Shown piece by piece: positions 12,251-36,432 of a stretch of 36,574 nucleotides of DNA. Where the stretch lies: contig CALKJQ010000153.1 of the NCBI GenBank assembly GCA_937995785.1, positions 1-36,574 on the forward strand. The letters are read 5' to 3'. Below the pieces are notes generated by a model. The model had not been told where the DNA came from. It made no database searches and was given only the letters and a program-made list of their open reading frames with translations. Both the position numbers and the translations under genes were made by a program. This DNA is from Candidatus Kapaibacterium sp. (GTDB taxonomy: Bacteria; Bacteroidota; Ignavibacteria; Kapaibacteriales; UBA2268). Position 1 is the first letter of the stretch. Each line of letters starts with the position of its first letter.

Positions 12251-12303
12251 GATTTTTTAATTTAACAAATATTTATTAAATTTTGAACACTTTTCGATAT
12301 ATT

Positions 12304-15096
12304 ATGAAAAAAAAAACAACAATACAAGAAAACAAAAAATTAATTACTATCAATAATGCATACCAAAACAATTTAAAAAACATTTCTTTAACAATACCTC
12401 GAAACAAGATCACTGTAATCACCGGAATCTCAGGTTCGGGAAAATCTTCTTTGGCTTTCGACACAATTTATGCCGAAGGACAACGTAGATTTGTAGAGTC
12501 TTTATCGGCATACACACGACAATTTTTAGAAAGAATGGAAAAACCAAAGGTAGAATCCATAAGCGGACTGCCACCAGCGGTTGCTATCGAGCAGAAGTCG
12601 CCTCCTCGCAACCCCCGTTCGACTGTGGGCACTATTTCGGAAATATATGATTTACTTAGAATTTTATTCGCAAGAATAGGTAAAACAATTTGTTATAGTT
12701 GCAATCAAATTGTTCAGAAAGATACTCCCCAAACGGTTGTTAATTCAATCAAATCTTTCGAAGATGGCAACAAGATTTATATTATGTTCCCAGTATCGCC
12801 ACAAACAAAAAGTTTGAAAAATGAATTACAAAAATTCAGAGAATTAGGTTTTTATCGTGCAATTAAAAAAGGCTCTAACGAAATAATCGATTTTGAAAAC
12901 AACGATATCGAAACAAATTTACTTAGTGAAGATTTGTATATATTAGTCGATCGTGTGGTTGTGGACCAAGACCAAGATACCCTTTCTAGAATCACAGATT
13001 CTATAGAAACTGCTTTTGGAATGGGTTATGGAAAGGTGATTGTTCGTAATATCGACAATGAAGTAGATTTCAAATTTAGTTCTATTTATGAATGTTCCAA
13101 TTGCGAAATAGTTTATCAAGAACCTTCACCTCATTTGTTTAGTTTCAATAGTCCGTTGGGTGCTTGCCGTCAATGTCAGGGATTTGGTAGGACTGTTGGG
13201 TGGGACGAGGAATTACTAATTCCCGACGTATCAAAATCAATAGCAGAAGGCGCTTTGCATCCGTTGAGAACCGAAGCAATGTCCAACTTGCTTTTCGAAC
13301 TTTTGAATGGCTTAAAAAAAATTGATTTTCCTATTGATAAGCCATACTTGAAATTGACCGACGAAGAAAAACGATTACTTTGGGAGGGGAAAGGACGCTT
13401 TCGTGCAATAAATGGAATTCTTCAGCATTTCGAGGAAAATAATTACAAAGTTCAATATAGAATACTTGCTAATCGTTATCGTGGCTATACTTTGTGCAAA
13501 TCTTGTAATGGTTCGAGATTGCGAACATCGGCTCGTCAGGTTTATGTTCAAGATATGAACCTACCCAAATTAATTGAATTACCAATAAGCGAAGCGTACG
13601 AATTTTTCCAAAAATTGACATTAAATGAATATGAATTTAAAATAGCCAAGCAAGTTTTAATCGAAATAAGACGTCGTTTGGAATTATTGGTCAAAATCGG
13701 TTTGGGGTATCTAACATTATCAAGATTATCCCATACACTTTCGGGCGGGGAATTACAGCGAATTAATTTAGCAACTGCTCTGGGTTCTTCGTTGGTTGGC
13801 ACTTTGTTTGTTCTCGACGAACCAAGCATTGGACTCCATCCATCGGATACTAATAAACTAATCGATATTATCAAAAGTATGAGAGATATTGGTAATACAA
13901 TTGTAATAGTCGAACACGATCTTGATGTTATCCAGAGTGCAGATCATATTATTGAATTAGGACCTAAAGCGGGAGATGGCGGTGGCGAAATAGTTTTCCA
14001 AGGTAGTTATTCCGAATTATTAAATGATAAAAATTCTATTACTTCAGATTATTTGCGAAAAAGAAAGAAAATCGAAAAAGTTAATTCGAAGAAAATCACA
14101 AACAGGAAAATTCGCATTTTCAATCCTCGCGAGAACAATTTGAAAATGGATTTAGTGGAAATTCCTTTAAATTGCGTTACTGTGGTTACGGGTGTATCTG
14201 GTTCGGGAAAGAGTACTCTGGTTATGGATATAATTTACAACGGAATAAGGAAATTAAGAGGTGAACCAAACACAAAAGCAACGAAATTCGAAAAAATTGA
14301 AGGACACGAATTAATCGATCAAATACAAATTATCGACCAGTCCCCTATTGGACGTTCCTCGCGATCCACTCCCGCAACCTACACTAAAGCATTTGATGCT
14401 ATTCGAGATGTTTTCGCATCAACGCAACTGGCAAAACAATTTGGACTGAAACCCGGATATTTTTCCTTCAATGTTCCTGGTGGAAGGTGTGAGGTTTGCG
14501 AAGGTGATGGATTTGTTACAATTGATATGCAATTTTTGGCAAATATTCAACTTACTTGTGAAGCTTGTGGCGGCAAACGCTATAAAAACGAGGCGTTGCA
14601 CTTTACTTACAAAGGCAAAACAATAGTAGATGTTTTGGAAATGACTATCGACCAATCATTACAATTTTTTTCGGATGTTCCCCAAATCACTCGAAAACTT
14701 AGAACTCTGTCAGATTTAGGTTTAGGGTATTTAACTCTTGGTCAATCTAGCACAGTTCTGAGTGGTGGAGAGTCCCAACGATTAAAAATTGCAGATTTTT
14801 TGGATTCGAAGAATTTTCAAAATAATTTAATTATTTTCGATGAGCCAACAACGGGACTTCACTTGGACGATATATCCAAATTATACAACTCAATAACAAA
14901 ACTTGTCGATAGTGGAAATACAATAATTATCGTCGAGCATAATTTAGAAATAATCAAAAACGCCGATTGGATAATCGATCTGGGACCCGGAGCCGGTAAT
15001 GATGGAGGTAATTTAGTTTTTAGTGGAACTGTCCTCGATTTATATAAAACCGATACACCAACTGCCAATTCTTTAAGGAATTATCCATTACTTTAA
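12304..15096 (+). CDS. uvrA: Excinuclease ABC subunit A (UvrA family), probable second-type UvrA
   Basis: UvrA recognises DNA damage in nucleotide excision repair as a dimeric twin ABC ATPase. Both halves are complete. The first has the Walker [10 protein letters not shown], zinc pairs CSNC/CRQC and CKSC, the signature [19 protein letters not shown] and Walker [14 protein letters not shown]. The second has GVSGSGKST, the zinc pairs CEVC/CEAC, signature [13 protein letters not shown] and [13 protein letters not shown] chose ATG 12304 (930 residues) over a TTG at 12283, because the family N terminus needs no extra residues. The [14 protein letters not shown] and [16 protein letters not shown] segments, and the lack of an evident RKGEY-like stretch near residue 165-185, resemble the second UvrA paralogue of Bacteroidota more than canonical UvrA; that is from memory. 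The next gene starts 1 base after the stop. Confidence 0.92.
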
Positions 15097-15097
15097 T

Positions 15098-15970
15098 ATG
15101 ACACGCAATTTGTTGAACTTAATACTTTTTACTTTTCTTATTATTACATCTGAAACCTTTTCTAATTGGGAATCAAGTTTCTTAGGATTGCTCGAAAAAT
15201 TTGATGAGGAAAAACTTCTAAATCAGCCAATTATTTCCTTATGGTATGGATTTGGCTCGAATGATAATTCGTTGTTATTTTCACAAGAAAAATTTGCCAA
15301 TTCTTATAACCTCGGTATAGAATATGGTTTTGTAAGAATTAAAGAGGATAAATCTACTTTACCCTACTATCTGCACTTTGGCGAAAGGGCATATTTCGAA
15401 AACCAATCTTCTCACCTTAAACCAAAAAGTTGGATTTCGAACGGCAAAACAATAGATGGATGGATATTTGGGTTGAAAGCTATAGATGGATTAGGACTAA
15501 AATCAAAGAATTTGGCTATCGAGTTCCAACATTCAGCAAGTTTAATATGGTCGCGATTCGATTTTGAAGATTATTTTCGTAATATCGAAACCAACAAGCA
15601 AATTCAGATGTTCGACCAACAATATAAATTTGGACGAAATTATGGATATGCCCTTTCGTTCCAATTTTTCGATAAATTAAATCTTGGTCTAAATTATTCT
15701 CAGAACTATCTTTATCCCGAATTCGAATTTAGTAAATGGGCAATTGCTTATCTCAGCGAAATATTATTACAAAAATGGATGGAACCATTTGATGAGGAAT
15801 TGAGACAAACCATTGGTTCGAATTATTGGTTGTATAAAAATATCTACAAATCATCTATATCTTTACTTATTACGAAAATTATGAACAAAAAGCCCTATCT
15901 TTTCTTTAATACCGACAGGGCTTTTAGCAACCAATTCGTAATGATTAAAATTTCTTATGTAGGCTTCTAG
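15098..15970 (+). CDS. Exported beta-rich protein of unknown function, possibly outer-membrane
   Basis: This 290-residue protein has an N-terminal signal-like hydrophobic stretch (NLLNLILFTFLIITSETFS). The rest alternates aromatic and polar residues as in outer-membrane or beta-barrel proteins (ISLWYGFGSN, YNLGIEYGFVR, YGYALSFQFF, LNLGLNYSQNYLYPEF), and it ends in IKISYVGF. A terminal phenylalanine in a beta strand is typical of proteins inserted by the BAM machinery. I do not recognise a family. It starts one base after uvrA stops, so it is probably coupled to it, without an evident functional link. Its stop codon overlaps that of the convergent SurA-like gene. Confidence 0.55.
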   Translation: MTRNLLNLILFTFLIITSETFSNWESSFLGLLEKFDEEKLLNQPIISLWYGFGSNDNSLLFSQEKFANSYNLGIEYGFVRIKEDKSTLPYYLHFGERAYFENQSSHLKPKSWISNGKTIDGWIFGLKAIDGLGLKSKNLAIEFQHSASLIWSRFDFEDYFRNIETNKQIQMFDQQYKFGRNYGYALSFQFFDKLNLGLNYSQNYLYPEFEFSKWAIAYLSEILLQKWMEPFDEELRQTIGSNYWLYKNIYKSSISLLITKIMNKKPYLFFNTDRAFSNQFVMIKISYVGF

Positions 15971-17253
15971 TTATCGATTACTTCCCAATACATTTTTTTT
16001 CTTAATCCATCAACCCATTCGTTGTATGTTTTCATTTTTTTATATTGTTGGGCTTGTTGTTGTAATATTTGATAATCCTGCTCTAAATTTGCTTTGTGGG
16101 CGGGTATAATTTTTTCTTTAAATAAGATCTGATAAGATTGTTTATTAATATCAGTTTCGAATGGCACAACTTTACTAACTTCACCAATATTAATCTCTTT
16201 CAATGCTTCAACAACACTGGTGGGGAAAGATTCCAAGGGCATATTTCCAATGTAACCGCTAAACCCTTTGGTATCTTCATCTTCGGAATATTGCTTGGCA
16301 ATTCGTTTAAAATCTTCTAAATTGTTTATTTTAGTTCTGATGGAGTCCAAAAATTTTTTTGCAATTTCTTTATCCTCATCGCCCTGACCAAAACGGAAAA
16401 GTATGTGGCTAACATTAATTTCGTCTTTGCGTTTTTCATTAACCTTGATTATGTGAAAACCCAAGGGAGTTTCAATTGGTAACGACACCTCGCCAACAAG
16501 CATCGAAAAACCAACACGCTCTAATTCGGGTAAGAATTTACCTTTTTGAATCCAACCCAAGTCTCCACCATCGTTTTTAGTTGCGTTATCTTCACTATAT
16601 GTTTTAGCAAATTCACTAAAATTACCACTAATTATTATAGAATCTCGGATTTTGAGTGCAAGTTTGAATATATCTTCTTTCTGCTGCATTTTTGGTTTAA
16701 CTTTTTTTACAATTCGATAAACTGATACCGCTTCGGGAATTGTTGGAATAGAATCTTGATATTTTTCGAAAAATTCTTGGATATCTTTTTGCGACACTTC
16801 AACTTTCATTAATTCCCTTTCTATCAATTTATTGCTCAATAGCTTATCTCTTATATCATCCTTGAATTCGTTTTTCATTTTGGGTATGGACATACCATAA
16901 ACTTGTTCCATTCGTTGCTCCGAACCAAGTTGCATAACAGATTGTTCCAAAAAAATTTGCCAACGTTGTTCTATTTCTTCATCGCTAACAACAATCGAAT
17001 CTTCTTTTGCTTTTGCAAGAATTAATTTCTCATCGATTATTGAATTGAGCACATCGTTATATATTTTGGGGTCATCGAATTTCAATTTTGGATTTTGTTG
17101 TAATAAAAATATAATTCTACCCTTAACTTCCGAATCGGTAATTGCTTCCTCACCAACTATAGCTACAATCTTATCGAGAGTTTCACCTTTTTTCAATTGC
17201 GAAAAGAGTGATATTGTGGTTAAGAGGAATAAAAATATTAATTTTAATTTCAT
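15967..17253 (-). CDS. surA: SurA-like periplasmic peptidyl-prolyl isomerase/chaperone
   Basis: SurA-type chaperones escort outer-membrane proteins across the periplasm. The 428-residue protein has a signal peptide (residues 1-19), then the standard SurA opening LDKIVAIVGEEAITDSEV, a helical chaperone domain (to about 170), and two parvulin (rotamase) domains at about 175-275 and 280-380. Each has the expected elements: FAKTYSEDNATKNDGGDLGW with FHIIKVNEKR, and FKRIAKQYSEDEDTKGFSGYIG. A C-terminal helix follows. It is the last gene of a minus-strand cluster, 27 bases after a larger parvulin gene. Its TAG stop shares the palindrome CTAG with the stop of the convergent gene. Confidence 0.9.
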   Translation of the reverse strand: MKLKLIFLFLLTTISLFSQLKKGETLDKIVAIVGEEAITDSEVKGRIIFLLQQNPKLKFDDPKIYNDVLNSIIDEKLILAKAKEDSIVVSDEEIEQRWQIFLEQSVMQLGSEQRMEQVYGMSIPKMKNEFKDDIRDKLLSNKLIERELMKVEVSQKDIQEFFEKYQDSIPTIPEAVSVYRIVKKVKPKMQQKEDIFKLALKIRDSIIISGNFSEFAKTYSEDNATKNDGGDLGWIQKGKFLPELERVGFSMLVGEVSLPIETPLGFHIIKVNEKRKDEINVSHILFRFGQGDEDKEIAKKFLDSIRTKINNLEDFKRIAKQYSEDEDTKGFSGYIGNMPLESFPTSVVEALKEINIGEVSKVVPFETDINKQSYQILFKEKIIPAHKANLEQDYQILQQQAQQYKKMKTYNEWVDGLRKKMYWEVIDN

Positions 17254-17280: not shown

Positions 17281-19323
17281 TTATTTTGCAAATTTTAGTA
17301 CTTGTTCTACATTTTTTTGATTGATCTTAACAGGAAAAGTCTTCTTAATATTGTTGAGCCAATTATTTAATAATTCTTTTTGATATTGTTCTTGCAATTT
17401 AGATGCAAAATCGGGTATAGCCTCTTCGAAGGTCTTCAATCTTGGTGGTTCGTATTTATTTATTTTCATTATTGTGTAACCATTTTCTACCTGAATTGGT
17501 TGAACAACTATTGGTTCGAGTATATTCCTCTCGTATAACAACTTCGCATATTTATTTGATTTACCCGAAACCAAGCCCATTTTTCCCGACTTTTCGCGAT
17601 ACCCCGACCTTTGAGTATATTGCGATGCCAATTCCTCGAAATTGGCACCATTTATGGCTGATTTGTAAATTTCTTGTGCCAACGAATCAGATAAAACATA
17701 TATTTCTGTTATATCATACATTGGGTCGGTATAATATTTGACTTTGGTGGTGTCGAAGTATTTCTTGGCGCGAGTTGAATCAAATTTCAATTTATCCCAA
17801 ATTTCGGAAGTTTCTGCTTTGAATAACAATATACCATCATTGAATTCATTCAGAATAATTTTGAAATCGGGAAATTCTTTTTCTAGATCTTTTGTTGCAT
17901 AGTCAATACAAATTGGTTCACATATCTTTTTAATTGCATTTTTGAGACCATCCTTATTGGTAGCATAGCCACGCAATAAGTTGTTTTTGTTCATTTCATC
18001 TACCAAATCGGCTACTGTAAATTTTCTTTTGGAAATTGTGAATAATGTTTTATTTTGAACCTCATTTGGGATATTTTCAGACCACGTTTTGTTAATGTTA
18101 CTCTTATTGGTATCGAGAGAAGCAACCATTTCATCAAGAACGTTTTGATTTAATTCAAATGACAGCTCTGCCATTAACTTATCGAAATAAACTGCTTTGT
18201 CGTCTTCGAGATATTGTCTTCTGTATATCTTATACACATCATCTTTTTCTGCGGTCATATCCAATTCTTTATCATCAAAATACTTAATAATATGTATTCC
18301 AAAATCAGTCATAACTTGATTGGATATTTCGTTTTTCTTTAGTGAAAATAATACATCAACAAATTTTGGGTCTAATAATCCTTTATTTTTTTCGAAACCT
18401 GTCGATCGCGAATAATATTCTTCGAACTTACCTTTGTTCGATGCAGTGTAAGTATCGCTCGATTCGGTGATTGCCAGATCCTCGAATTTTTCACCTTTCT
18501 TAATTCGGTCGATTATCTTTTGAGCTTTATCCTGGTTATTCACTAATCCTAATGTAGAATCGATTTCATTCTTGATTAGTATATGTCCTCCCAAAACCCA
18601 TTTTCGAGGCTGTTTGTCCAAAACTTTAACAATAAAATAACCGAAAGGTGTTATTATAATTTTTGGATGAATTTGCCCAACTTCTGTTTTATAAATTGCA
18701 TCTTCCAATTCTCGATATATTTTCCCCGAAGTAATCCACTGATCGACTTTTCCACCTCGACGTGCTAAATTTTCATCATCATTGTATTTTGCCGCAATTG
18801 TATCGAAATCTCCTCCATTTTTGATTTCTTTCATCGCTTGCTGAATTTTTTCGAAGGCTTTTGCTGTATCTCTGATAGGTGCTTGCGAAAATGTTGTAAA
18901 AATAATTGCAAATTTGTATTCCCACTTTCGCCGTTCGAGCATTTCGGCAACATTAGGCTCAATTAGTTTCTTTGTAAATAAAAAGTTTTCAGATAAAATT
19001 TTTCTATTTTGGATGCTTTCTGCTATTATTGCAGAGTCTTTGTCCAATCCCTTTCTTTTGGCTTCGAGAACCTTCAACCTAAAGTTTGCGTAGAGGTTAA
19101 TAAAGTCATATAAACTATCTTTATCCAGAAGATAGAGATAAGGTTGGTGTTTGTTCACATTCTTTTGGTAGGCTCTTTCCAATTGTTCGTAGGTAATTTC
19201 TTCAGTTCCAACACTAAGGAGGACTAATCTGTTGATTTTGGATAAATCTTGAGAATTTAACGACAAACTAAATATAGTGAAAAGTAAAAGAAAGACTGAG
19301 AAAAAGATATTCTTGTTATTCAT
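17281..19323 (-). CDS. Large parvulin-type peptidyl-prolyl isomerase, exported (PpiD/SurA-like)
   Basis: The 680-residue protein has an N-terminal signal peptide or anchor (NNKNIFFSVFLLLFTIFSLS). Its parvulin-like domains lie at about 135-237 (FDTIAAKYNDDENLARRGG, then TPFGYFIVKVLDKQPR), about 242-350 (GGHILIKNEID, FEDLAITESSDTYTASNKGK, TDFGIHIIKYFDD) and about 545-650 (FEELASQYTQRSGYREKSGK, VENGYTIMKINKYEPP). The N-terminal helical region resembles the SurA/PpiD chaperone part. The domain between residues 360 and 540 is less clear. It sits between murC and the SurA-like gene in one minus-strand cluster and is likely a second folding factor for envelope proteins. Long, multi-parvulin proteins of this type are common in Bacteroidota. 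Confidence 0.85.
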   Translation of the reverse strand: MNNKNIFFSVFLLLFTIFSLSLNSQDLSKINRLVLLSVGTEEITYEQLERAYQKNVNKHQPYLYLLDKDSLYDFINLYANFRLKVLEAKRKGLDKDSAIIAESIQNRKILSENFLFTKKLIEPNVAEMLERRKWEYKFAIIFTTFSQAPIRDTAKAFEKIQQAMKEIKNGGDFDTIAAKYNDDENLARRGGKVDQWITSGKIYRELEDAIYKTEVGQIHPKIIITPFGYFIVKVLDKQPRKWVLGGHILIKNEIDSTLGLVNNQDKAQKIIDRIKKGEKFEDLAITESSDTYTASNKGKFEEYYSRSTGFEKNKGLLDPKFVDVLFSLKKNEISNQVMTDFGIHIIKYFDDKELDMTAEKDDVYKIYRRQYLEDDKAVYFDKLMAELSFELNQNVLDEMVASLDTNKSNINKTWSENIPNEVQNKTLFTISKRKFTVADLVDEMNKNNLLRGYATNKDGLKNAIKKICEPICIDYATKDLEKEFPDFKIILNEFNDGILLFKAETSEIWDKLKFDSTRAKKYFDTTKVKYYTDPMYDITEIYVLSDSLAQEIYKSAINGANFEELASQYTQRSGYREKSGKMGLVSGKSNKYAKLLYERNILEPIVVQPIQVENGYTIMKINKYEPPRLKTFEEAIPDFASKLQEQYQKELLNNWLNNIKKTFPVKINQKNVEQVLKFAK

Positions 19324-26879: not shown

Positions 26880-28757
26880 TTATGCTATATAGCTTCCACG
26901 TTTAGTATAATGAGTGTGCAATAATTTATGAGAAAGATGCGAACAAGGTCCTTCGGTTAAGAACTTTTGGTAAAGGTAATTCACGTGTTGGTTTTCGTGA
27001 GATTTTCTAAGTGGCAAGCCAGCATCTTCATCATAGATGGCTTTAGCTCGAGCGGCACGAATTTCGGAACTTGTGGGAATTGGTTGACCACCACCACCAA
27101 TACAACCTCCTGGACAACCCATAATTTCGATAAAATGAACATCGTTCAGTTCGCCTGCAACCAATCTATCCATTACAATCTTGGCATTAGCAGTGCCGTG
27201 GGCTATCATAAATTTCAAGTCAATTCCTTCGAGGAACGACCATTCGGGTTTTACATTTTCCAACTTAATCGAAGCTTCTTTCACTCCATCCATACCCCGG
27301 CAAGGAGTTATGTTTAAATTTTCGAATGGAACTTCTCTGCCCGTAACAAGTTCGTATGCAGTTCTTAATGCAGCTTCCATCACGCCACCAGTGGCACCAA
27401 AGATAAGACCAGCTCCGCTGGCTTCTCCAAATGGTTCGTCGAATCCTGTTTTGGGTAGATCTGGCAAGTTTATGCCAGCTTCTTTTATCATTTGGGCTAA
27501 TTCGCGAGTTGTTAGACCGTAATCAACATCTTTGAATCCACTATCGTTCATTTCGGGACGATTGCACTCAAACTTCTTTGCCGAGCAAGGCATAACCGCA
27601 ACTGTAACTATATCTGCAGGATCTACTCCAGTTTCTTGAGCATAGAAAGTTTTCAGAACTGCTCCGAACATTTGTTGCGGGGACTTAGCTGTGGAAAGGT
27701 AATCCAAATAATCGGGATAAAAATGTTCGATAAATTTAACCCAACCTGGGGAACAAGAAGTGAACTGCGGTAATTTTACGTTTGGATCTTTATCGACCAA
27801 TGCAGATTTTAATCTGAGAAGTAGTTCAGTGCCCTCTTCCATTATAGTGAGGTCAGCTGTAAAATTGGTATCAAACACTCTATCGAAACCAATCATTCGA
27901 AGCGCCGTATTTAATTCGCGAGTAAGCGACCGACCTGGTGCTAAACCAAATTCTTCACCAATAGCCGCACGCGGAGAAGGTGCAGTTTGGATAACTACGT
28001 GCTTCTTTGGGTTATCGATTGCATCCCAAATTGCATCTGAAGGATCGTTGGCACGCAATGCACCAGTTGGGCAACGATTTATGCACTGTCCACAATTAAT
28101 ACAAATCACTTCTGCCAAAGGTTTGTCCATAAAGGTTGTGATTTTTGTTTCGTAGCCTCTGTTCAATGCTTCCAAACAACCTACTTCTTGCAAATCAATA
28201 CAAGTGCGAACACATCTTCGGCATAGAACGCACTTATTCATATCGCGTACTACCGAGTAACTGGAATTGTCAACCTCGTAATGTGGATTCTGGACGTGTC
28301 CGAATCGATAAAAATCAACTCCGTGCTCTTTGGCTAATGATTGTAATTCGCAATTATTATTCCTTACGCAGGAATAGCACTCTCCATAATGATCGCTCAA
28401 AAGCAAGTCGATAATATGGCGACGCGATTTCCGAACTTTTTCGGATGTGGTTTTTATCTTTATCGAGTTGGTAATAGGATAAGTGCATGCCGATTGTAAT
28501 GTTCGCATTCCTTCAACTTCGACGACACAAACACGGCATACACCCGCAATACACAAATCGTCGTGATAGCACAATGTTGGAATATGAAAATCAAATTGTT
28601 TGCAAGCATCCAAAATATAAGTGCCAAAAGGAACCTGAAATTGTTTGCCATTAATTTCTATATCAACCAATCCGCCGATTTCGTGGGCAGACCCTTTGTC
28701 GATTTTAATTGACTGCTGAGCGGTTGGTATTCTTGTCGAAAAACTACTATCTGTCAT
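26880..28757 (-). CDS. hydA: [FeFe] hydrogenase catalytic subunit (HydA-like, NADH-linked trimeric type)
   Basis: This 625-residue subunit makes or oxidises H2 at the H-cluster. N-terminal NuoG-like electron relay: [2Fe-2S] cysteines C63, C74, C77, C91; the His-Cys [4Fe-4S] site H123, C127, C130, C136; two ferredoxin-type [4Fe-4S] sites, CVLCRRCVRTC (C176-C186) and CINCGQCINRC (C219-C229). H-cluster motifs: L1 FTSCSPGW (C335), L2 MPCSAKKFE (C391), L3 FIEIMGCPGGCIGGGGQP (C548, C552). L1 has Ser336 where many enzymes have the proton-shuttle Cys (TSCCP). The C-terminal tail (about 570-625) contains YLYQKFLTEGPCSHLSHKLLHTHY. No signal peptide: cytoplasmic. hydB is 10 bases upstream, with hydC before it. 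The maturases HydE, HydF and HydG are not in the window. Confidence 0.95.
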   Translation of the reverse strand: MTDSSFSTRIPTAQQSIKIDKGSAHEIGGLVDIEINGKQFQVPFGTYILDACKQFDFHIPTLCYHDDLCIAGVCRVCVVEVEGMRTLQSACTYPITNSIKIKTTSEKVRKSRRHIIDLLLSDHYGECYSCVRNNNCELQSLAKEHGVDFYRFGHVQNPHYEVDNSSYSVVRDMNKCVLCRRCVRTCIDLQEVGCLEALNRGYETKITTFMDKPLAEVICINCGQCINRCPTGALRANDPSDAIWDAIDNPKKHVVIQTAPSPRAAIGEEFGLAPGRSLTRELNTALRMIGFDRVFDTNFTADLTIMEEGTELLLRLKSALVDKDPNVKLPQFTSCSPGWVKFIEHFYPDYLDYLSTAKSPQQMFGAVLKTFYAQETGVDPADIVTVAVMPCSAKKFECNRPEMNDSGFKDVDYGLTTRELAQMIKEAGINLPDLPKTGFDEPFGEASGAGLIFGATGGVMEAALRTAYELVTGREVPFENLNITPCRGMDGVKEASIKLENVKPEWSFLEGIDLKFMIAHGTANAKIVMDRLVAGELNDVHFIEIMGCPGGCIGGGGQPIPTSSEIRAARAKAIYDEDAGLPLRKSHENQHVNYLYQKFLTEGPCSHLSHKLLHTHYTKRGSYIA

Positions 28758-28767
28758 TTTCTTACTC

Positions 28768-29943
28768 CTAATAATGTTCAGCTAAAATTTCATCCCCAAA
28801 ATGGGTCATAATTGTGATAAATGGATTCGGACTTGACTGACCTAAACCACATTTGGATGATACTTGCATTGTTCGTCCCAAGTCGATAAGTTCTCTGAGA
28901 TACTTAACAGAGCATTTTCCTTGTTCTATCATATTAACACCATCCAATAATTTCTTGTTTCCAACGCGACATGGAGTGCACTGACCGCAAGATTCTTCTG
29001 TAAAGAATTCCATAAAGTTTTTCAAAATTTTAAGCATATCTCGCGACTTATTGAAAACAATGATCGACCCTCCAGTCGGGACGTCCTCGAATGATAAATT
29101 TCTGTGTAATTCTTCCTCGGGAATGCAAATGCCCGATGCACCACCTATTTGGACCGCTTTGGTATCTTTGGCTCGAACCATTTCGAGCATATCGATTATT
29201 TTTGTTCCAAATGGAACTTCGTAAATACCGGGGCGCTCCACATCACCCGAAATTGAAAGTAATTTTGTTCCTCGGGATTTCTCTGTTCCAATATTTCTGA
29301 ACCATTCAGCACCTTTGTTGATTATAATTGGAACCGACACCAAAGTTTCAACGTTATTTACCACTGTTGGATAACCCATATATCCAGTATTAACGGGATA
29401 AGGAGGACGATTTCTGGGTTCTCCCCGATGCCCTTCCAACGATTCAATTAGTGCGGATTCCTCGCCACAAACATAGGCACCAGAACCTAAGCGAACTGAG
29501 ATATCAAAATCAAAATTCTTACCAAAAATTCCTTTTCCTAATTTACCTTCTTCGTGGAATTTATTAATAACCCCATTTATGTGGGACAGCATATATTCGT
29601 ATTCACCGCGAAGATAAATATATCCCTCTTTTGCGCCAATGGCATAACCACAAAGAATCATACCTTGCAGAAGTTCGTCGGTATATTCAGTTAACAACAA
29701 TCTATCCTTGAATGTGCCGGGTTCGCCCTCGTCTGCATTGCAAATCACATACTTTTTGGGAGAAACAGCTGTTGCCGCAAGCATCCATTTTGTGCCAGTT
29801 GGAAAGCCAGCACCACCTCGACCTTTTAAACCAGACTCGCGAATTTCGAGAACAATATCGATTGGACGACCTTTTATTCCTTTTTCGAATCCATTTCCGA
29901 AATTATTCCTATCGAAAATTATAGGTTTATTTAAAATTGGCAT
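28768..29943 (-). CDS. hydB: NADH-binding flavoprotein subunit of the hydrogenase (HydB/NuoF-like, core-only)
   Basis: This 391-residue NuoF-type subunit carries FMN and oxidises NADH or reduces NAD+. FMN/NADH motifs: GLKGRGGAGFPTGTKW (residues 38-53), CNADEGEPGTFKDR (68-81) and GSGAYVCGEESALIESLEG. A [4Fe-4S] site is formed by C319, C322, C325 (SCGQCTPCR) and C365. Bifurcating HydB proteins such as that of Thermotoga carry an N-terminal thioredoxin-like [2Fe-2S] domain and C-terminal ferredoxin domains. Both are missing here; the protein is only the NuoF core. It lies 10 bases upstream of hydA and 10 bases after hydC (each intergenic gap 10 nt), all minus strand, so they are one complex. Confidence 0.93.
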   Translation of the reverse strand: MPILNKPIIFDRNNFGNGFEKGIKGRPIDIVLEIRESGLKGRGGAGFPTGTKWMLAATAVSPKKYVICNADEGEPGTFKDRLLLTEYTDELLQGMILCGYAIGAKEGYIYLRGEYEYMLSHINGVINKFHEEGKLGKGIFGKNFDFDISVRLGSGAYVCGEESALIESLEGHRGEPRNRPPYPVNTGYMGYPTVVNNVETLVSVPIIINKGAEWFRNIGTEKSRGTKLLSISGDVERPGIYEVPFGTKIIDMLEMVRAKDTKAVQIGGASGICIPEEELHRNLSFEDVPTGGSIIVFNKSRDMLKILKNFMEFFTEESCGQCTPCRVGNKKLLDGVNMIEQGKCSVKYLRELIDLGRTMQVSSKCGLGQSSPNPFITIMTHFGDEILAEHY

Positions 29944-29953
29944 TATTCTCCTC

Positions 29954-30427
29954 CTATTTCAATGAATTTAAAATATCAACAACTTTGCGGGGGGTTAGAT
30001 TAGTATAAACTTCATTGTTGATAAGCATGGCCGGACCTTGGTCGCACATACCTAAGCAGCTTATAAACTCTAAAGAATATTTTTCGTCTTTGGTAACCTC
30101 GCCAAACTTTATTCCAAGTTCGCGTTCGAATGTTTTGGCAATTCCGTCCTTATTCATTAAATCACAAGAAATTGTTTGGCAAAGCCTAATATTATACTTT
30201 GCCCTCCTACCTTTTCGAAAAAATGCATAAAATGTAACAACTCCGTCGACTTCAACAGGATGAATTTTGAGCAATCGTGCAACTTCTTGTTGGGCATGAG
30301 CCGAAATATACCCGTGCTTTCTTTGGATGTGTTGCAATATTGGCATCAATGCCTGTCGTCCGTTGCCGAGTGTTTGCACTAACTCTTGAATTTCTTCATT
30401 GAGAGCACTAACTTCACTAGCTAACAT
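29954..30427 (-). CDS. hydC: NuoE-like [2Fe-2S] subunit of the hydrogenase (HydC)
   Basis: This 157-residue thioredoxin-like ferredoxin passes electrons between the flavoprotein and hydrogenase subunits. The four cluster ligands are C83 and C88 (LCQTISCDL) and C124 and C128 (FISCLGMCDQGPAML). An N-terminal helical domain has ALMPILQHIQRKHGYIS and VDGVVTFYAFF, as in NuoE. Length is normal for NuoE/HydC. It follows the response regulator gene by 13 bases and precedes hydB by 10 bases. Confidence 0.94.
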   Translation of the reverse strand: MLASEVSALNEEIQELVQTLGNGRQALMPILQHIQRKHGYISAHAQQEVARLLKIHPVEVDGVVTFYAFFRKGRRAKYNIRLCQTISCDLMNKDGIAKTFERELGIKFGEVTKDEKYSLEFISCLGMCDQGPAMLINNEVYTNLTPRKVVDILNSLK

Positions 30428-31439: not shown

Positions 31440-32177
31440 ATGAACAAACATAATTTTACTGTTGTTATCTTAGCTGCGGGCAAAGGCAAGAGAATGAATA
31501 ACCCTAATTTGCCTAAAGTTTTGGTCGAATTTAATGGACAGCCTCTATTGAATTATGTGATTGAACTATCGCTAAAATTAAATCCAAATCAAATCATTGT
31601 AATTGTTGGACATCATAAAGAGCAAGTTATCAAATTTCTTGAAAAATTTAATTCAAATATCATTCAATTTGCCGAACAAAACCAACAACTTGGCACGGGG
31701 CATGCCGTCCAACAAGCCGAACCATTTATATCGAGCGAAATTGAGAATATATTGATTCTTTCGGGGGATGTGCCTTTGCTAACAATTCAAACTTTGGAAG
31801 AATTTATCCAAATGCACCACTTCTATTCCTCCGATGCTTCGGTTCTATCGAGCATCACACCAACTCCCATTGGATATGGAAGAATTGTTAGGGATTCCGA
31901 AGGTAGGTTTGTCAGAATTGTTGAAGAAAAAGATGCAACAGAATTAGAGAAAAATATAAAAGAAATCAATTCGGGAATTTATATCATAAACAAAGAATTG
32001 CTTTTTCAGTCTTTGAAATTTGTTCAGAATAACAATGCTCAAAATGAATATTACTTAACAGATGTAATTTCTATACTTCACAATCAAAAAAGAAACGTAA
32101 ACGCATTCGTTATTGCGAATTTTGATGAAATACAGGGCGTAAACAGCATTAATGATTTAAAAAACTTAAAATTATAA
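31440..32177 (+). CDS. Stand-alone sugar-1-phosphate nucleotidyltransferase, GlmU N-terminal-like
   Basis: This 245-residue protein starts with the nucleotidyltransferase signature FTVVILAAGKGKRMNNPNLP. It continues with QQLGTGHAVQQAEP, ILSGDVPLLTIQTLE, GYGRIVRD and EINSGIYI, all as in the uridylyltransferase half of GlmU. The left-handed beta-helix acetyltransferase half of GlmU (about 200 more residues) is missing, and no partner acetyltransferase is adjacent. It probably makes UDP-N-acetylglucosamine or another nucleotide sugar. ATG 31440 was chosen, 4 bases after panD, over an in-frame ATG at 31362 inside panD. It precedes methylmalonyl-CoA epimerase by 18 bases. Confidence 0.86.
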   Translation: MNKHNFTVVILAAGKGKRMNNPNLPKVLVEFNGQPLLNYVIELSLKLNPNQIIVIVGHHKEQVIKFLEKFNSNIIQFAEQNQQLGTGHAVQQAEPFISSEIENILILSGDVPLLTIQTLEEFIQMHHFYSSDASVLSSITPTPIGYGRIVRDSEGRFVRIVEEKDATELEKNIKEINSGIYIINKELLFQSLKFVQNNNAQNEYYLTDVISILHNQKRNVNAFVIANFDEIQGVNSINDLKNLKL

Positions 32178-32195: not shown

Positions 32196-32600
32196 ATGAT
32201 TAAATCAATTAATCACATTGGTATTGCAGTAAAAGATTTAAATGATTCTTTAGACTTATTTACAAAATTATTTCAAATCCAAAATGTTCACACCGAAGAA
32301 GTAGCAGCACAAAAAGTAAAAGTTGCTTCGTTCAAGGTAGGAGAAGTGCTGATCGAACTTACTCAAGCAACTGATGAGTCATCTCCAATCGCAAAATTCA
32401 TCGAAAAGAAAGGCGAAGGTATCCACCATATAGCATTCGAAACCGATGACGTTGATTCGGAATTGAACAGATTGAAAGAATTGAATTTTTCATTAATTAA
32501 CGAAACTGCCGTAAAAGGTGCACACGATATGCAAATTGCATTTTTGCATCCAAAATCCACAAACGGAGTTTTAACAGAACTATGTCAACCAACCCATTGA
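32196..32600 (+). CDS. mce: Methylmalonyl-CoA epimerase
   Basis: This 134-residue vicinal-oxygen-chelate protein interconverts (R)- and (S)-methylmalonyl-CoA, linking propionyl-CoA and succinyl-CoA. Recognised segments are INHIGIAVKDLNDSLDLF (metal ligand H7), VGEVLIELTQAT, GEGIHHIAFETDDV (His ligand), KGAHDMQIAFLHPKSTNGV and LTELCQP (Glu ligand). Length is normal. An SD-like GAGG (32183-32187 region) precedes the start. Methylmalonyl-CoA mutase is not in the window. The acyl-CoA carboxylase at 6867-8474 could belong to related acyl-CoA chemistry but is far away. The next gene begins 10 bases later. Confidence 0.93.
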   Translation: MIKSINHIGIAVKDLNDSLDLFTKLFQIQNVHTEEVAAQKVKVASFKVGEVLIELTQATDESSPIAKFIEKKGEGIHHIAFETDDVDSELNRLKELNFSLINETAVKGAHDMQIAFLHPKSTNGVLTELCQPTH

Positions 32601-32610
32601 GGATAATTTA

Positions 32611-34275
32611 ATGTATCTCATATTATTTTTTTTATTGATAGGTTTGTCGCAGTTATTTGCACAACAAATCAAGTCGACCGATTTAATTCAAATTTCCGAA
32701 AAAGAAATAAATCGAACAATCAACGGATTGAAGGATAAACCTAATCCCCCATACTTTATTTCGTATTACATTACAGAGACCCAGAGTTATCGACTTGCTT
32801 CGACAAACGGAGTAATAGATACGAAGAACCACGATAGTTCCCGAATGTTAGATATTCAAGTTAGAGTTGGCGATTATAAATTCGACAATACCCACTTGAT
32901 AAGAGGCAATCCACTGAATTTTAATAGCAGTATGGGAAGAATTGAGCTACCATTTGTCGATGATGAACAAGCCATAAGAAACACGATGTGGTTTGCGACC
33001 GACAAAGCCTATAAAAACGCCATAGAGAGATACGAAAAAGCATTAACCAACTCGAAGGTTAAGGTTCAAGAAGAAGATACATCGGCTGATTTTTCAATGG
33101 AACAGCCACTTGTTGCACTCGAAAATGGTCAACTTTATAGATTGAATCTCGATAATTACGAATCAATGATTAAGCGGTTATCTTCGAAATTTACAAAACA
33201 TAAGTGGATTTTGAATTCATCTGTGTCTTTTTTTGGAAATTCAATAAGAAAAATAATTGTTACAAGCGAAGGAACAAAAATCCAAACATACGAAAATTAT
33301 TTTTATATTTTCGTAAATGCAAGTACCAAAGCCGACGATGGAATGAGCTTGCCACTATATAGAAGTTTTTACACCTACGACCCTTTTAATATGCCACAAG
33401 AGCAAGAAATCGATGCAGAAATTGATAAATTGATTGATTTGCTCGGTAAGTTAAGAATTGCTCCTTATGCTGAAGTTTATACCGGTCCAGCAATGCTTTC
33501 GGGACGTGCCGCAGGAGTGTTTTTCCACGAAATATTCGGTCATCGTGTGGAAGGGCACCGCGAGAAAGATCCAAACTCAAGTCAAACATTTAAAAAATCG
33601 ATTGGTGAGAAAATTCTACCTGATTTTATGAATATTGTATTCGACCCAACTTTGAGGAAATTGAACAACACTCCTATTGCGGGTTACTATGTTTACGACG
33701 ACGAAGGTGTGAAAGCACAAAAAGTTGAAGTTGTTAAAAATGGTGTTTTCTCTGATTTTTTAATGTCGAGAACTCCTATCGATGGTTTTTCCAAATCTAA
33801 TGGACATGGTAGAAAGTCAAGTGGTTATACGAGTGTAACTCGCCAATCCAATCTTATTGTTCAAAGCAATAAAACAAAAACTATCGAAGAATTGAGAGAG
33901 GAATTAAGAAGAATTGCTAAAGAGCAAGGTAAAGACTACGGATTATTTTTTGATGATGTTTCTGGTGGCTTCACATTCACAAGTCGCTCAATTCCAAACG
34001 CTTTTAACGTAACGCCTTTAGTGGTATACAAAGTTTATGTCGATGGACGACCCGATGAATTAGTTCGTGGTGTAGATTTGATTGGAACGCCTTTAACAAC
34101 ATTTGCAAACATAATAGGTGTGGGCAACGATATGGGTATCTTCAATGGAATATGTGGAGCCGAGTCCGGCGGAGTGCCCGTCTCTGCTTGTTCCCCATCG
34201 TTACTTGTTTCGAGAATTGAAGTGCAGAAGAAACTAAAATCCCAAGCAAAACCACCAATTTTACCAGCACCATAA
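32611..34275 (+). CDS. Exported TldD-like metallopeptidase (U62 family), metal site present
   Basis: The 554-residue protein has an N-terminal signal-like sequence (MYLILFFLLIGLSQLFAQ), unlike cytoplasmic TldD of E. coli. The TldD metal site is there: H306-E307 and H311 (FHEIFGHRVEGHRE, HExxxH form), with C515 (NGICGAESGGVPVSA) as the likely third ligand, by comparison with TldD. GRAAGVFFHE, PIAGYYVYDDEG, FLMSRTPIDGFSKSNGHGR and ELVRGVDLIGTPLTTFANI are also family-like. TldD/TldE are known as a heterodimeric protease acting on unfolded or modified peptides (microcin B17, CcdA). It is followed 16 bases later by a paralogue lacking the metal site. Confidence 0.87.
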   Translation: MYLILFFLLIGLSQLFAQQIKSTDLIQISEKEINRTINGLKDKPNPPYFISYYITETQSYRLASTNGVIDTKNHDSSRMLDIQVRVGDYKFDNTHLIRGNPLNFNSSMGRIELPFVDDEQAIRNTMWFATDKAYKNAIERYEKALTNSKVKVQEEDTSADFSMEQPLVALENGQLYRLNLDNYESMIKRLSSKFTKHKWILNSSVSFFGNSIRKIIVTSEGTKIQTYENYFYIFVNASTKADDGMSLPLYRSFYTYDPFNMPQEQEIDAEIDKLIDLLGKLRIAPYAEVYTGPAMLSGRAAGVFFHEIFGHRVEGHREKDPNSSQTFKKSIGEKILPDFMNIVFDPTLRKLNNTPIAGYYVYDDEGVKAQKVEVVKNGVFSDFLMSRTPIDGFSKSNGHGRKSSGYTSVTRQSNLIVQSNKTKTIEELREELRRIAKEQGKDYGLFFDDVSGGFTFTSRSIPNAFNVTPLVVYKVYVDGRPDELVRGVDLIGTPLTTFANIIGVGNDMGIFNGICGAESGGVPVSACSPSLLVSRIEVQKKLKSQAKPPILPAP

Positions 34276-34291
34276 TTGAGAGATAAAAAAA

Positions 34292-36058
34292 ATGAAAAAA
34301 TTAATAATAATTATTATTATCATCGCATCTGCTTTATTGAATTTGAATGCACAATATCCTGATACCAAAATTGTTATGAGTGCAATGAAAGACGAATTAA
34401 CACGCTCGATGAAAGAACTTAAATTAGAAAACCTTCAGAAACCTTATTATATCGAGTACCAATTGAAAGTGATGGGTGAGTATAATGCCTCTGCTTTTCT
34501 CGGCAATCTTACTAATTCCAGTTCGGGTTTTAATTACATTTTGAATGTATCTGTTCGGGTTGGGGATTATCAGTTCGACAACTCTAATTTCCTCGATATA
34601 GGATTTTCCTTTTTCGGGAGCACCGACGATGAGGAGAGATTTACCAATCGACGAATCCCTGAGGAAATTAATTACGACATTTTGAGACGACAATTATGGT
34701 TAGCCACAGATGCTGCCTACAAACAATCCTCGGAAGTCTATTCTAAAAAAGTTGCAAGCATCAAAAATTTAACCCGAAAAGATTCCATTCCCGATTATTC
34801 GATAGTAAAACCAAGTAAGTCATACGATACTACAAATAAATTTGATTTCCAATTTGATTACTTTATAAAGTTGATAAAAGAATTGAGCAATCAATTCAGT
34901 GGATTACCTCAAATCTACACTTCGAAAGTAAATTTTGAATATCTTCCCACAAGAATCTATTACCTAAACAGTGAAGGAATTGAGTATATCAAGGATGAGC
35001 ATTTTAGTGGTATCGAAGCCATTTGCTTTACGCAAACAGAAAAAGGAATACCAATTGCACAGCATTACAGTGTTTATTCCCGACAACCAAAAAATCTACC
35101 TTCCAAGGATTCACTTCGTCGGGCAATAAACGAAATTGCCATTAAACTAATCGCCAAGACCTCGCAATCGAGTTTGGAAGATAGTTACAATGGTCCGGTA
35201 ATAGTTGAAGGACAAGCCGCTGGCGAAATTATTTCTCGAGTGTTTGCTCCAAATTTAATTGCACAAAGAGAAAAGTTAAGCGAAGGTATGATAGCAAGTT
35301 TTGGAGGACGATTTAACGCATTCCAAAAGAAAATTGGCGGTAGGGTGCTTCCGGAATTCATATCAGTATTCGACAAACCAAAAGAATTGAATTATAAATC
35401 AACAGAATTGGTTGGATACTATACAATAGACGACCAGGGTATTGAACCTAAGAATGTAACCTTGGTCGATAATGGTTTTCTGAAAACATTATTGAACGAC
35501 AGAACTCCAATCAAAAGAGTAATGGAAAGCAATGGTCATCGCCGTGGCGGCGTGCCAATGTTCAGCAATTTATTTTTCTTTTTAGATTCAACAAAAACAT
35601 TTTCGAATCAAGATTTAAAGAAAAAATTGTTGGAGCTTGTTAAACAAAGGGAGTTGCCATTTGGCATTATTATCCGTAAAGTAATGAATCAAAACATTTT
35701 CTCCACATCGCTTATGAGCCAAACCTACGGAGCAATCTCATTCTTGATAGATCAAAACTCAATTCCAATCGTGGAAGCATATAAAATTTATCCCGATGGC
35801 CGCGAAGAACTATTGAAAAATGTTCAAATTAATTCGTTGTCTCATCAATCTTTCAAAGATATTTTATTTGGTAGCAAAGAAATTTATGTTCATAATCTAC
35901 TTGCTCAAAATCCAGGTGGAGGATTTGGATCGGAAGGTTCTGCGTGGATACCATCAAGTATAATATCTCCATCATTGCTGTTCGAGGACTTAGAAATCAC
36001 CAACGTTGATAAAGATATTCCTAAACCACCTTTTTTATCTAATCCAATCAAGAATTAA
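34292..36058 (+). CDS. Exported TldE/PmbA-like protein, metal site lost, partner of the preceding gene
   Basis: This 588-residue paralogue of the previous protein has its own signal peptide (MKKLIIIIIIIASALLNLNAQ) and shares the RVGDYQFDN and AAYKQSSEVY lines near the N terminus. At the metal-site position it reads GQAAGEIISRVFAPN (about 308-321), so HExxxH is gone, and the third-ligand Cys region (AQNPGGGFGSEGSAW) has no Cys. The C-terminal region keeps ELVGYYTIDDQGIEP, LNDRTPIKRVMESNGHRRGG and PSSIISPSLLFEDLEI. This asymmetry matches the TldD/TldE heterodimer, in which only TldD holds the metal. Tandem duplication followed by loss is the likely origin. It is 16 bases after the metal-bearing gene and 5 bases before a small membrane protein gene. 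Confidence 0.85.
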   Translation: MKKLIIIIIIIASALLNLNAQYPDTKIVMSAMKDELTRSMKELKLENLQKPYYIEYQLKVMGEYNASAFLGNLTNSSSGFNYILNVSVRVGDYQFDNSNFLDIGFSFFGSTDDEERFTNRRIPEEINYDILRRQLWLATDAAYKQSSEVYSKKVASIKNLTRKDSIPDYSIVKPSKSYDTTNKFDFQFDYFIKLIKELSNQFSGLPQIYTSKVNFEYLPTRIYYLNSEGIEYIKDEHFSGIEAICFTQTEKGIPIAQHYSVYSRQPKNLPSKDSLRRAINEIAIKLIAKTSQSSLEDSYNGPVIVEGQAAGEIISRVFAPNLIAQREKLSEGMIASFGGRFNAFQKKIGGRVLPEFISVFDKPKELNYKSTELVGYYTIDDQGIEPKNVTLVDNGFLKTLLNDRTPIKRVMESNGHRRGGVPMFSNLFFFLDSTKTFSNQDLKKKLLELVKQRELPFGIIIRKVMNQNIFSTSLMSQTYGAISFLIDQNSIPIVEAYKIYPDGREELLKNVQINSLSHQSFKDILFGSKEIYVHNLLAQNPGGGFGSEGSAWIPSSIISPSLLFEDLEITNVDKDIPKPPFLSNPIKN

Positions 36059-36063
36059 TAAAA

Positions 36064-36432
36064 ATGAATGGGTTTTGGTCGATATTTTTATTGATTATTT
36101 CGAACACCTTTATGACTTTTGCGTGGTATGGTCATCTTAAGTTCAAAGAGATAAAATTCTTTGATACTTTGCCTCTTTTCCTGATAATACTATTGAGTTG
36201 GGGAATAGCATTGTTCGAATATATTTTCCAAGTACCAGCAAATAGGTTAGGATATAAGGACTACAGCGGACCTTACTCATTAGTAGAATTAAAAGTGATT
36301 CAAGAGGTGGTTTCCCTCACCGTGTTTAGCGTATTCACAATATTGATTTTCAAAACAGAAACATTTAAAATAAACCATTTGATAGGTTTTGGATTTTTAA
36401 TTTTAGCAGTTTATTTTATTTTTAAAAATTAG
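36064..36432 (+). CDS. Small four-helix membrane protein, DMT family (DUF486-like)
   Basis: This 122-residue protein has four membrane helices: about 4-22, 33-52, about 83-100 and 103-119. MTFAWYGHLKF, ALFEYIFQVPANRLGY and the SLVELKVIQEVVSLTVFSVF line match the DUF486/DMT-type small protein family of the inner membrane. The substrate is unknown; some members resemble half-transporters. It begins 5 bases after the TldE-like gene and ends 9 bases before the next one, so all are on one plus-strand run. Confidence 0.8.
   Translation: MNGFWSIFLLIISNTFMTFAWYGHLKFKEIKFFDTLPLFLIILLSWGIALFEYIFQVPANRLGYKDYSGPYSLVELKVIQEVVSLTVFSVFTILIFKTETFKINHLIGFGFLILAVYFIFKN

What the first reader, a model, noticed from the sequence alone, without database searches (positions are those of the whole stretch)
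32611..36058. Tandem exported TldD/TldE-like pair: one with a metal site, one without
Both proteins have their own signal peptides, whereas E. coli TldD/TldE is cytoplasmic. The first has HExxxH plus C515 and the second has lost all three ligands, mirroring the TldD/TldE heterodimer. They are 16 bases apart and related in sequence. The substrate could be envelope or extracellular peptides, which would be a different job from the known cytoplasmic one. The location and partner are inference.
Basis: partly seen in the sequence, partly recalled or inferred. Interest (0 to 1): 0.55.

Follow-up and report, generated by a model that had tools for sequence, protein, structure and literature searches.

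The report
Exported TldD/TldE-like two-part peptidase
Two neighbouring genes encode an exported, two-part metal protease resembling the cell-interior TldD/TldE enzyme of E. coli, and its inactive half seems to have evolved separately from the E. coli one, so bacteria may have built this kind of enclosed peptide shredder for their cell envelope as well as for the cell interior.

Summary
Genes 32611-34275 (554 aa) and 34292-36058 (588 aa) lie 16 bases apart. Each has a Sec-type signal peptide with Gln at the predicted +1. The first keeps HExxxH (306-311) and C515; the second has lost all three metal ligands. Both are members of the TldD/TldE superfamily (PF19289; predicted folds match TldD/E crystal structures and, at E<=0.001, nothing else), but not orthologues of E. 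coli TldD and TldE. In trees of the catalytic domain the two exported subunits group together, apart from both cytoplasmic-type subunits (100/100), and grouping the two catalytic subunits is rejected (p-AU 0.006). So the dead partner probably arose twice. The pair is widespread (71 of the 80 best named loci carry both genes; several phyla) and is conserved across the window's order, where the classical pair is rare. Natural fusions with a single signal peptide in two lineages, and a predicted fusion model (pTM 0.85), support a heterodimer in one exported compartment. Most likely it is a periplasmic metallopeptidase with an enclosed active site that trims unfolded peptides. Activity, substrate and location are untested. 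Exported TldD is not unique: Bacteroidota TldD often carries Tat-like signals. New variant of a known kind.

The parts
32611..34275 (+). Catalytic subunit, exported TldD-like (here called xTldD)
   Evidence: ORF; PF19289 105 bits; HExxxH + C515; fold of the orthologous half of the L062 fusion matches E. coli TldD at Z 30.1
32611..32661 (+). Predicted Sec signal peptide of xTldD (residues 1-17, cleavage before Q18)
   Evidence: hydrophobic segment, x-x-A|Q pattern; inferred, no experiment
33526..33543 (+). Metal-site motif HEIFGH (residues 306-311)
   Evidence: sequence; 80 of 80 relatives (retrieval patterns favour it)
33487..34227 (+). PmbA_TldD_3rd catalytic domain of xTldD
   Evidence: Pfam PF19289, residues 293-539
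34153..34155 (+). C515, predicted third metal ligand (equivalent of E. coli TldD C454)
   Evidence: alignment to TldD; 80 of 80 relatives
34292..36058 (+). Non-catalytic partner, exported TldE-like (here called xTldE)
   Evidence: ORF; PF19289 54 bits; model pLDDT 90.9; Foldseek to TldD/TldE only
34292..34351 (+). Predicted Sec signal peptide of xTldE (residues 1-20, cleavage before Q21)
   Evidence: inferred, no experiment
35195..36001 (+). PmbA_TldD_3rd domain of xTldE
   Evidence: Pfam PF19289, residues 302-570
35234..35251 (+). Degenerate metal site (S315-P320) of xTldE
   Evidence: alignment; no HExxxH in 71 of 71 relatives
32196..32600 (+). Upstream gene, methylmalonyl-CoA epimerase (10 bases from xTldD; probably co-transcribed, not part of the system)
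   Evidence: TIGR03081 over its cut-off; not a conserved neighbour
36064..36432 (+). Downstream DMT_6 (DUF486) membrane protein (5 bases after xTldE; not part of the system)
   Evidence: PF04342

Best explanation
The two genes encode an exported heterodimeric metallopeptidase of the TldD/TldE superfamily. Each subunit is sent across the inner membrane by Sec, cut by signal peptidase I, and pairs in the periplasm. xTldD binds one metal ion (probably Zn or Fe, as in E. coli) through H306, H311 and C515, with E307 as general base. xTldE has no metal site and supplies the other half of a hollow shell, so that only unfolded peptides reach the active site and are cut into short pieces from one end, as proposed for E. 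coli TldD/E. The likely job is removal or trimming of unfolded peptides in the cell envelope. The dead partner most likely arose by duplication inside this exported lineage, separately from the origin of cytoplasmic TldE. Shown by sequence or model: two-gene unit, ligands present and absent, signal-like N-termini, fold, co-inheritance, fusions, tree. Inferred: metal binding, activity, entry route, periplasmic location, substrate.
For: Ligands: H306, E307, H311, C515 and R411 (brace R362 of E. coli) in 80 of 80 relatives; gene 2 lacks HExxxH in 71 of 71. Export: 79/79 and 70/70 intact N-termini pass the hydrophobic rule, canonical TldE control 1/15. Same compartment and complex: three fusion genes with one signal peptide and the second signal lost, L062 and L019 in the Kapabacteria group and L187 in a Gammaproteobacteria record; the halves of L062 and L187 fall in different clades, so at least two fusion events. 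Fusion model: 1105 aa, pLDDT 87.6, pTM 0.85; first half Z 30.1 to TldD over 445 residues, second half Z 23.5 to a TldE. Window xTldE model pLDDT 90.9, pTM 0.90; the 16 Foldseek hits at E<=0.001 are all TldD/TldE. Co-inheritance: gene 2 within the locus in 71 of 80; over 300 bits in 59 of 61 genomes of the order; in 22 of 22 strongly matching Acidobacteriota genomes; Mantel r 0.895, 0 of 2000 permutations as high. Separate origin of the dead subunit: split 100/100, p-AU 0.0058 against joining the catalytic subunits. Independence from the classical pair: PF01523 found in 4 of 25 genomes of the order, one of them a partial match.
Against: No activity, metal or localisation data. Signal peptides were called by a home-made rule that 185 of 367 unrelated ORFs also pass. 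H/E/H conservation in the named set is partly built in by the search patterns. The pTM comes from one fused relative, with 8 of 28 other rows joined by reading through a stop codon and only 9 rows over the second half; AlphaFold may recall the known TldD/E structures. The clamp residue K456 and its partner D272 of E. coli TldD are replaced (A517 in 80/80; H316 in 72/80), so the active-site edge and perhaps the specificity differ. No functional neighbour is conserved. A signal-less, apparently partnerless relative exists (L214), so neither export nor pairing is absolute in the wider clade.
Confidence: 0.72

Rival explanations
1. The pair is an exported amidase or N-deacetylase rather than a peptidase, cutting a non-peptide amide bond in the envelope. 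The TldD/TldE superfamily is said to contain N-deacetylases.
For: [quoted passage not shown] the review itself was not read. The substitutions around the cleft (A517, H316) would allow another substrate.
Against: Metal ligands, general base and brace Arg are all kept; no biosynthetic neighbours are conserved; the distribution (25 of 25 genomes of the order) looks like housekeeping.
Confidence: 0.12
2. The pair matures a specific exported peptide (leader removal), like E. coli TldD/E for microcin B17, but outside the inner membrane.
For: Known TldD/E members remove RiPP leader peptides (PMC5810440, abstract, sections 11, 13, 15; PMC10885120 passages).
Against: No RiPP-type family in the neighbour tallies shown (top 25 families), no conserved partner gene, and presence in nearly every genome of an order and in several phyla fit poorly with one dedicated substrate.
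Confidence: 0.1
3. xTldD acts alone or as a homodimer, and xTldE is a regulator or an unrelated periplasmic protein kept nearby by chance.
For: A Sulfolobus TldD homodimer has been reported active (discussed in PMC5810440, section 15); a lone relative exists (L214).
Against: Fusions in two lineages, partner retained where unlinked (for example G283, G204, G192, G275, G220, G023, G168, G160, G279), matching distances, predicted joint fold.
Confidence: 0.05
4. The exported pair descends directly from cytoplasmic TldD and TldE that gained signal peptides, with a single origin of the dead subunit.
For: Same division of labour; deep trees of fast-changing subunits are hard.
Against: Split {xTldD,xTldE} against {TldD,TldE} 100/100 with and without the trait columns; p-AU 0.0058, log-likelihood difference 59.8; xTldD and xTldE align over full length including the N-terminal half where neither matches PF01523.
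Confidence: 0.1

Closest known systems
E. coli TldD/TldE (PmbA) heterodimer, MEROPS M103, PDB 5NJ5 and others
   Same: Two-domain fold in both subunits by predicted structure, HExxxH + distal Cys in one subunit only, brace Arg, dead partner.
   Different: Sec signal peptides on both subunits; N-terminal half not recognised by PF01523; A517 for K456 and H316 for D272; not orthologous subunit by subunit; genes adjacent or fused, whereas E. coli tldD and tldE are about 1.1 Mb apart.
Bacteroidota classical-type TldD with an N-terminal RRxF/L-type (Tat-like) motif
   Same: Probably exported TldD with HExxxH; 27 of 29 frames from the PF01523 survey.
   Different: Belongs to the classical clade (PF01523 hit; cD rows); Tat-like rather than Sec-type signal; its TldE partner has no signal of its own in the cases examined (1 of 15 canonical TldE frames passed the hydrophobic rule).
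Myxococcus xanthus MXAN_2519 'Peptidase U62' in the OMV-enriched protein list
   Same: A protein of the old U62 (TldD/PmbA) class found outside the cytoplasm by mass spectrometry (PMC4158809, passage).
S. maltophilia operon with two TldD proteins and a MoxR-like ATPase
   Same: Two TldD-family genes in one operon (PMC7688217, passage).
   Different: Sequence and export not examined here.

Membership tests
TldD/TldE superfamily (PF19289 C-terminal domain) | PmbA_TldD_3rd domain over the curated cut-off (22 bits) | tested here: met
   105 and 54.2 bits
TldD/TldE superfamily | PF01523 N-terminal domain by sequence | tested here: not met
   No hit at E<=0.001 in either protein
TldD/TldE superfamily | Two-domain TldD/E fold, N-terminal domain included | tested here: met
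   Window xTldE model: 16 Foldseek hits at E<=0.001, all TldD/E, 550-582 aligned columns; fusion model: Z 30.1 to TldD over 445 residues. Predicted, not solved
TldD (catalytic subunit, M103) | HExxxH plus distal Cys (or Asp) metal ligands | tested here: met
   H306, E307, H311, C515
TldD (catalytic subunit, M103) | Clamp Lys (K456) with Glu/Asp partners | tested here: not met
   A517 in 80/80; K in 21/22 canonical TldD; D272 position is H316; E314 kept
TldD orthologue (NCBIfam NF008006, NF040952) | Score over the curated equivalog cut-offs (513, 635) | tested here: not met
   49.5 and 97.7 bits
TldE/PmbA orthologue (NF008268) | Score over 438, and grouping with TldE in a tree | tested here: not met
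   xTldE has no NF008268 hit; groups with xTldD, 100/100
TldD/E-type heterodimer | One catalytic and one dead subunit forming one shell | tested here: inconclusive
   Fusions and fusion model pTM 0.85 favour it; no biochemistry
TldD/E-type peptidase | Metal-dependent cleavage of unfolded peptides | not testable with these tools
   needs purified proteins
TldD/TldE-type N-deacetylases | Sequence grouping with the lincosamide enzymes and amidase activity | not tested
   no sequences fetched
Sec / signal peptidase I substrates of the Q-rule type | n-h-c signal peptide with Gln at +1 | tested here: inconclusive
   Both window proteins fit; home-made rule, 185/367 of unrelated ORFs also pass the hydrophobic part
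T9SS cargo or lipoprotein | C-terminal sorting domain; lipobox Cys | tested here: not met
   No sorting-domain hit; no lipobox in either window protein

The most novel reading that the evidence does not exclude
Diderm bacteria evolved a second, envelope-resident version of the TldD/E peptidase chamber, exported in two halves by Sec and assembled outside the inner membrane, in which the catalytically dead half was invented independently of cytoplasmic TldE; in the window's order this exported machine, not the cytoplasmic one, is the conserved TldD/E.
Probability: 0.5. Interest if true: 0.68.

Novelty: new variant of a known kind. Interest (0 to 1): 0.52.

Why it matters
TldD/E is treated as a ubiquitous protease of the cell interior with unclear housekeeping role. 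A widespread exported relative would place the same enclosed, low-specificity peptide cutter in the periplasm, where free unfolded peptides are a hazard and a food source. If the dead subunit really arose twice, it is a clean natural test of why a peptidase shell needs a non-catalytic half. The single-chain fusions give ready-made proteins for structure and activity work.

Tried and rejected
Conserved neighbours as a clue to substrate: scanned 60 of 74 upstream and 59 of 70 downstream neighbour calls (I left out shorter or doubtful frames) and 123 neighbours from 27 loci outside the Kapabacteria/Ignavibacteria group. Lineage-specific pieces only: His_Phos_1 14/60, Glyoxalase_4 7/60, Wzz 9/59; outside the group no family in more than 3 of 123. 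Rejected as functional evidence.

Joint alignment of fusion and single-subunit rows for both halves (A4): the gene-2 rows came out at only about 28% identity to the fusion, as expected if laid on its first half, so it was not used; A6 keeps gene-1 singles plus paired rows and was checked.

Literature: searches for TldD/TldE/PmbA, TldD with signal peptide/periplasm/Bacteroidetes, old family names, TldD with Tat or exported, MXAN_2519, TldD with secretome/OMV and TldD-like/related gave no paper in the listings that describes an exported TldD/TldE pair of this type; the library is open-access only and the 2022 family review was not seen in it.

Unrelated rows under Z 5 in the VIA-align list (CapZ, CsgG, MHC-like) were ignored.

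Rows dropped before counts: the Mantel test uses 61 of 71 pairs (truncated, frame-broken or over-long frames left out); the first tree left out 3 canonical frames, the second also two rows of L192. Of 80 named loci, 9 have no separate gene 2 within about 6 kb: L062 is a fusion; L046, L051, L063, L071 and L100 have contig lengths equal to the contigs of G168, G283, G160, G275 and G204, where gene 2 lies elsewhere in the genome; L052, L055 and L096 are unresolved. L113 (gene 1) and L087 (gene 2) were not counted as intact. The loci overlap (some are the same contigs), so they are not added together.

Full report
What is there. The window carries an operon-like run on the + strand: a nucleotidyltransferase-like gene ending at 32177, methylmalonyl-CoA epimerase 32196-32600, gene 1 32611-34275, gene 2 34292-36058, and a DMT_6 protein 36064-36432, with gaps of 18, 10, 16 and 5 bases. 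The two genes of the finding align to each other over their whole length (27% identity, E=8e-56). Pfam sees only the TldD/TldE C-terminal domain PF19289 in each (105 and 54 bits); the N-terminal family PF01523 is not seen. NCBIfam's TldD and PmbA equivalogs are hit far below cut-off or not at all. Gene 1 matches E. coli TldD in the PDB by sequence (E=1e-14, residues 284-537), and that alignment places H306, E307, H311 and C515 on H262, E263, H267 and C454, the ligands and catalytic Glu described for TldD. Gene 2 has no significant PDB sequence hit.

Export. Both N-termini have a short start, a long hydrophobic stretch and a cleavage-like x-x-A followed by Gln. Bacteroidota signal peptidase I substrates mostly start with Gln after cleavage; the Q-rule paper gives 55% for Chloroherpeton thalassium and 77% for Ignavibacterium album (PMC5837995, abstract and passages). 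The frames at 15967-17253 and 17281-19323 (the latter a PPIC-type PPIase, typical of the periplasm by recall) show the same Gln pattern. In 80 named relatives the hydrophobic rule is met by 79 of 79 intact gene-1 and 70 of 70 intact gene-2 N-termini; 1 of 15 canonical TldE frames and 185 of 367 unrelated ORFs meet it, so the rule is sensitive but not specific, and the strength lies in consistency. An x-x-A/G/S|Q pattern is seen in about half of the relatives (19/41 and 18/39 for gene 1; 14/34 and 22/37 for gene 2), so Gln itself is not a constant feature. Neither window protein has a lipobox or a type IX sorting domain. Periplasm is the best guess.

Spread and linkage. Record titles include Kapabacteria, Ignavibacteria, other Bacteroidota, Acidobacteria-type groups, Gemmatimonadota, Planctomycetota, Aminicenantes, Opitutae, Alpha- and Gammaproteobacteria. 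Titles of metagenome bins can be wrong (L040 is titled Desulfobulbaceae but sits with the Kapabacteria proteins in the trees). Gene 2 lies in 71 of the 80 loci and never has HExxxH (0 of 71). In one sub-clade a 177-184 aa gene, membrane-protein-like by eye, sits between the two. In the window's order gene 1 is found in 25 of 25 genomes sampled, and gene 2 scores over 300 bits in 59 of 61 (the other two, G113 and G311, show only weaker matches, and in G113 gene 1 runs off the contig end). In nine genomes the two genes are far apart yet both kept. In Acidobacteriota (phylum of G332, the genome of L078) 22 of 149 genomes have gene 1 at E<=1e-150; all 22 have gene 2, 21 on the same contig nearby (one of these split into fragments) and one elsewhere. 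Distances among 61 gene-1 proteins and their partners agree (Mantel r 0.895, 0 of 2000), which also reflects common descent of the species.

Independence from the classical pair. The window's own genome has a classical adjacent TldD-TldE pair on contig C58, but PF01523 is found in only 4 of the 25 genomes of the order, one of these a partial match in an 866-aa frame. Among 12 named carriers chosen by me, 7 show only the exported pair among PF19289 hits. So the exported pair does not depend on the classical one.

Fusions. In L062 one unbroken frame holds both proteins with one signal peptide; gene 2's signal is missing and the join is seamless. L019 (genome G086, same group) has the same fusion. 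A Gammaproteobacteria record (G334, L187) has a third, with a longer linker. In the tree the L062 halves sit with Kapabacteria and the L187 halves with L091 and L078, so fusion happened at least twice. A fused protein with one signal puts both halves in one compartment.

Structure. The window's gene-2 protein (mature, 563 aa) was predicted at pLDDT 90.9, pTM 0.90; its 16 PDB matches at E<=0.001 are all TldD/TldE/PmbA entries, over nearly the full length, TM-score by target 0.66-0.77. The L062 fusion (1105 aa) was predicted at pLDDT 87.6, pTM 0.85. Its first half aligns to TldD at Z 30.1 (445 residues, 3.4 A) and less well to TldE entries (Z 24.6-27.2), and B. thetaiotaomicron TldE aligns to the second half (Z 23.5) (Foldseek). 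A pTM of 0.85 over two equal halves implies a confident mutual placement (inference); the alignment had 29 rows, 9 of them covering both halves, and the known complex may have been in the training data.

Evolution. On the C-terminal domain (73 rows) the four groups xTldD, xTldE, TldD and TldE are each one side of a branch, and {xTldD,xTldE} against {TldD,TldE} has 100/100 support. Forcing the two catalytic groups together costs 59.8 log-likelihood units, p-AU 0.0058. With the metal-site columns dropped and fusions and a lone relative added (80 rows) the split stays at 100/100. The tree is unrooted; unless the root lies on one of the two dead-subunit branches, the metal site was lost twice. The central branch is long (about 2 changes per column), so wider sampling is needed. 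The lone relative (L214, Acidobacteriota) has HEAVGH and the C-G-A-E motif, no obvious signal peptide, and no second match in its genome; its place relative to xTldD and xTldE is unresolved.

Active site. H306, E307, H311, E314, R317, R411 and C515 are in 80 of 80 relatives (H/E/H and R317 partly by construction of the search patterns). E. coli K456, which ties the clamp to E270 and D272 (PMC5810440, section 13), is replaced by Ala (80/80) and D272 mostly by His (72/80); canonical TldD keeps Lys and Asp in 21 of 22 each. The cleft edge is therefore held differently and the S2 side, which K456 lines in E. coli, is changed; a specificity shift is inference. C515 is one of only two Cys in the protein, so a disulfide is not expected to compete strongly (inference).

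How it most likely works. Two Sec-exported halves assemble into a hollow shell with one metal site, and nibble unfolded peptides in the periplasm. Near-universal presence in the order and lack of conserved neighbours favour a general clearing or scavenging role over one dedicated substrate.

Known or new. The fold, the metal site and the catalytic/dead division of labour are those of TldD/E (Ghilarov et al. 2017, PMC5810440: abstract and sections 11, 13, 15 read, passages of others). Export of TldD relatives has a second form in Bacteroidota: 27 of 29 classical TldD frames carry an RRxF/L-type motif at the N-terminus, and M. xanthus lists a U62 peptidase among OMV-enriched proteins (PMC4158809, passage). 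I found no description of this Sec-exported pair in the searches listed under Tried and rejected. I file it as a new variant of a known kind.

Noticed in passing
L115-L144 and L188-L207 (Bacteroidota classical TldD): Classical-type TldD frames start with a Tat-like RRDF/RRxF motif and hydrophobic stretch (27 of 29), while partner TldE frames lack a signal; the TldE may hitchhike through Tat with TldD.
   Followed up: partly
L214:2768-4420: A lone relative of the exported catalytic subunit in an Acidobacteriota genome, with HEAVGH and the C-G-A-E motif but no obvious signal peptide and no partner match in that genome.
   Followed up: partly
G000:C58:3400-6100 (window's own genome, L197): Classical adjacent TldD-TldE pair without obvious signals, rare in this order.
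   Followed up: partly
L039, L041, L042, L043, L049, L066, L107, between gene 1 and gene 2: A 177-184 aa gene, membrane-protein-like by eye, is inserted between the two exported TldD/E-like genes in one sub-clade.
   Followed up: no
G334 (L091, L187): One Gammaproteobacteria record carries three exported pairs (one fused) and two classical pairs.
   Followed up: no
window 26880-30427: Run of genes on the - strand for an iron-only (Fe-Fe) hydrogenase large-subunit protein (Pfam) next to NuoF- and NuoE-like proteins (names of the latter two by recall from sequence), suggesting an electron-bifurcating hydrogenase.
   Followed up: no
window 12283-15096: UvrA-like protein of 937 aa with a TTG start in the listing; not compared with the genome's other UvrA.
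   Followed up: no
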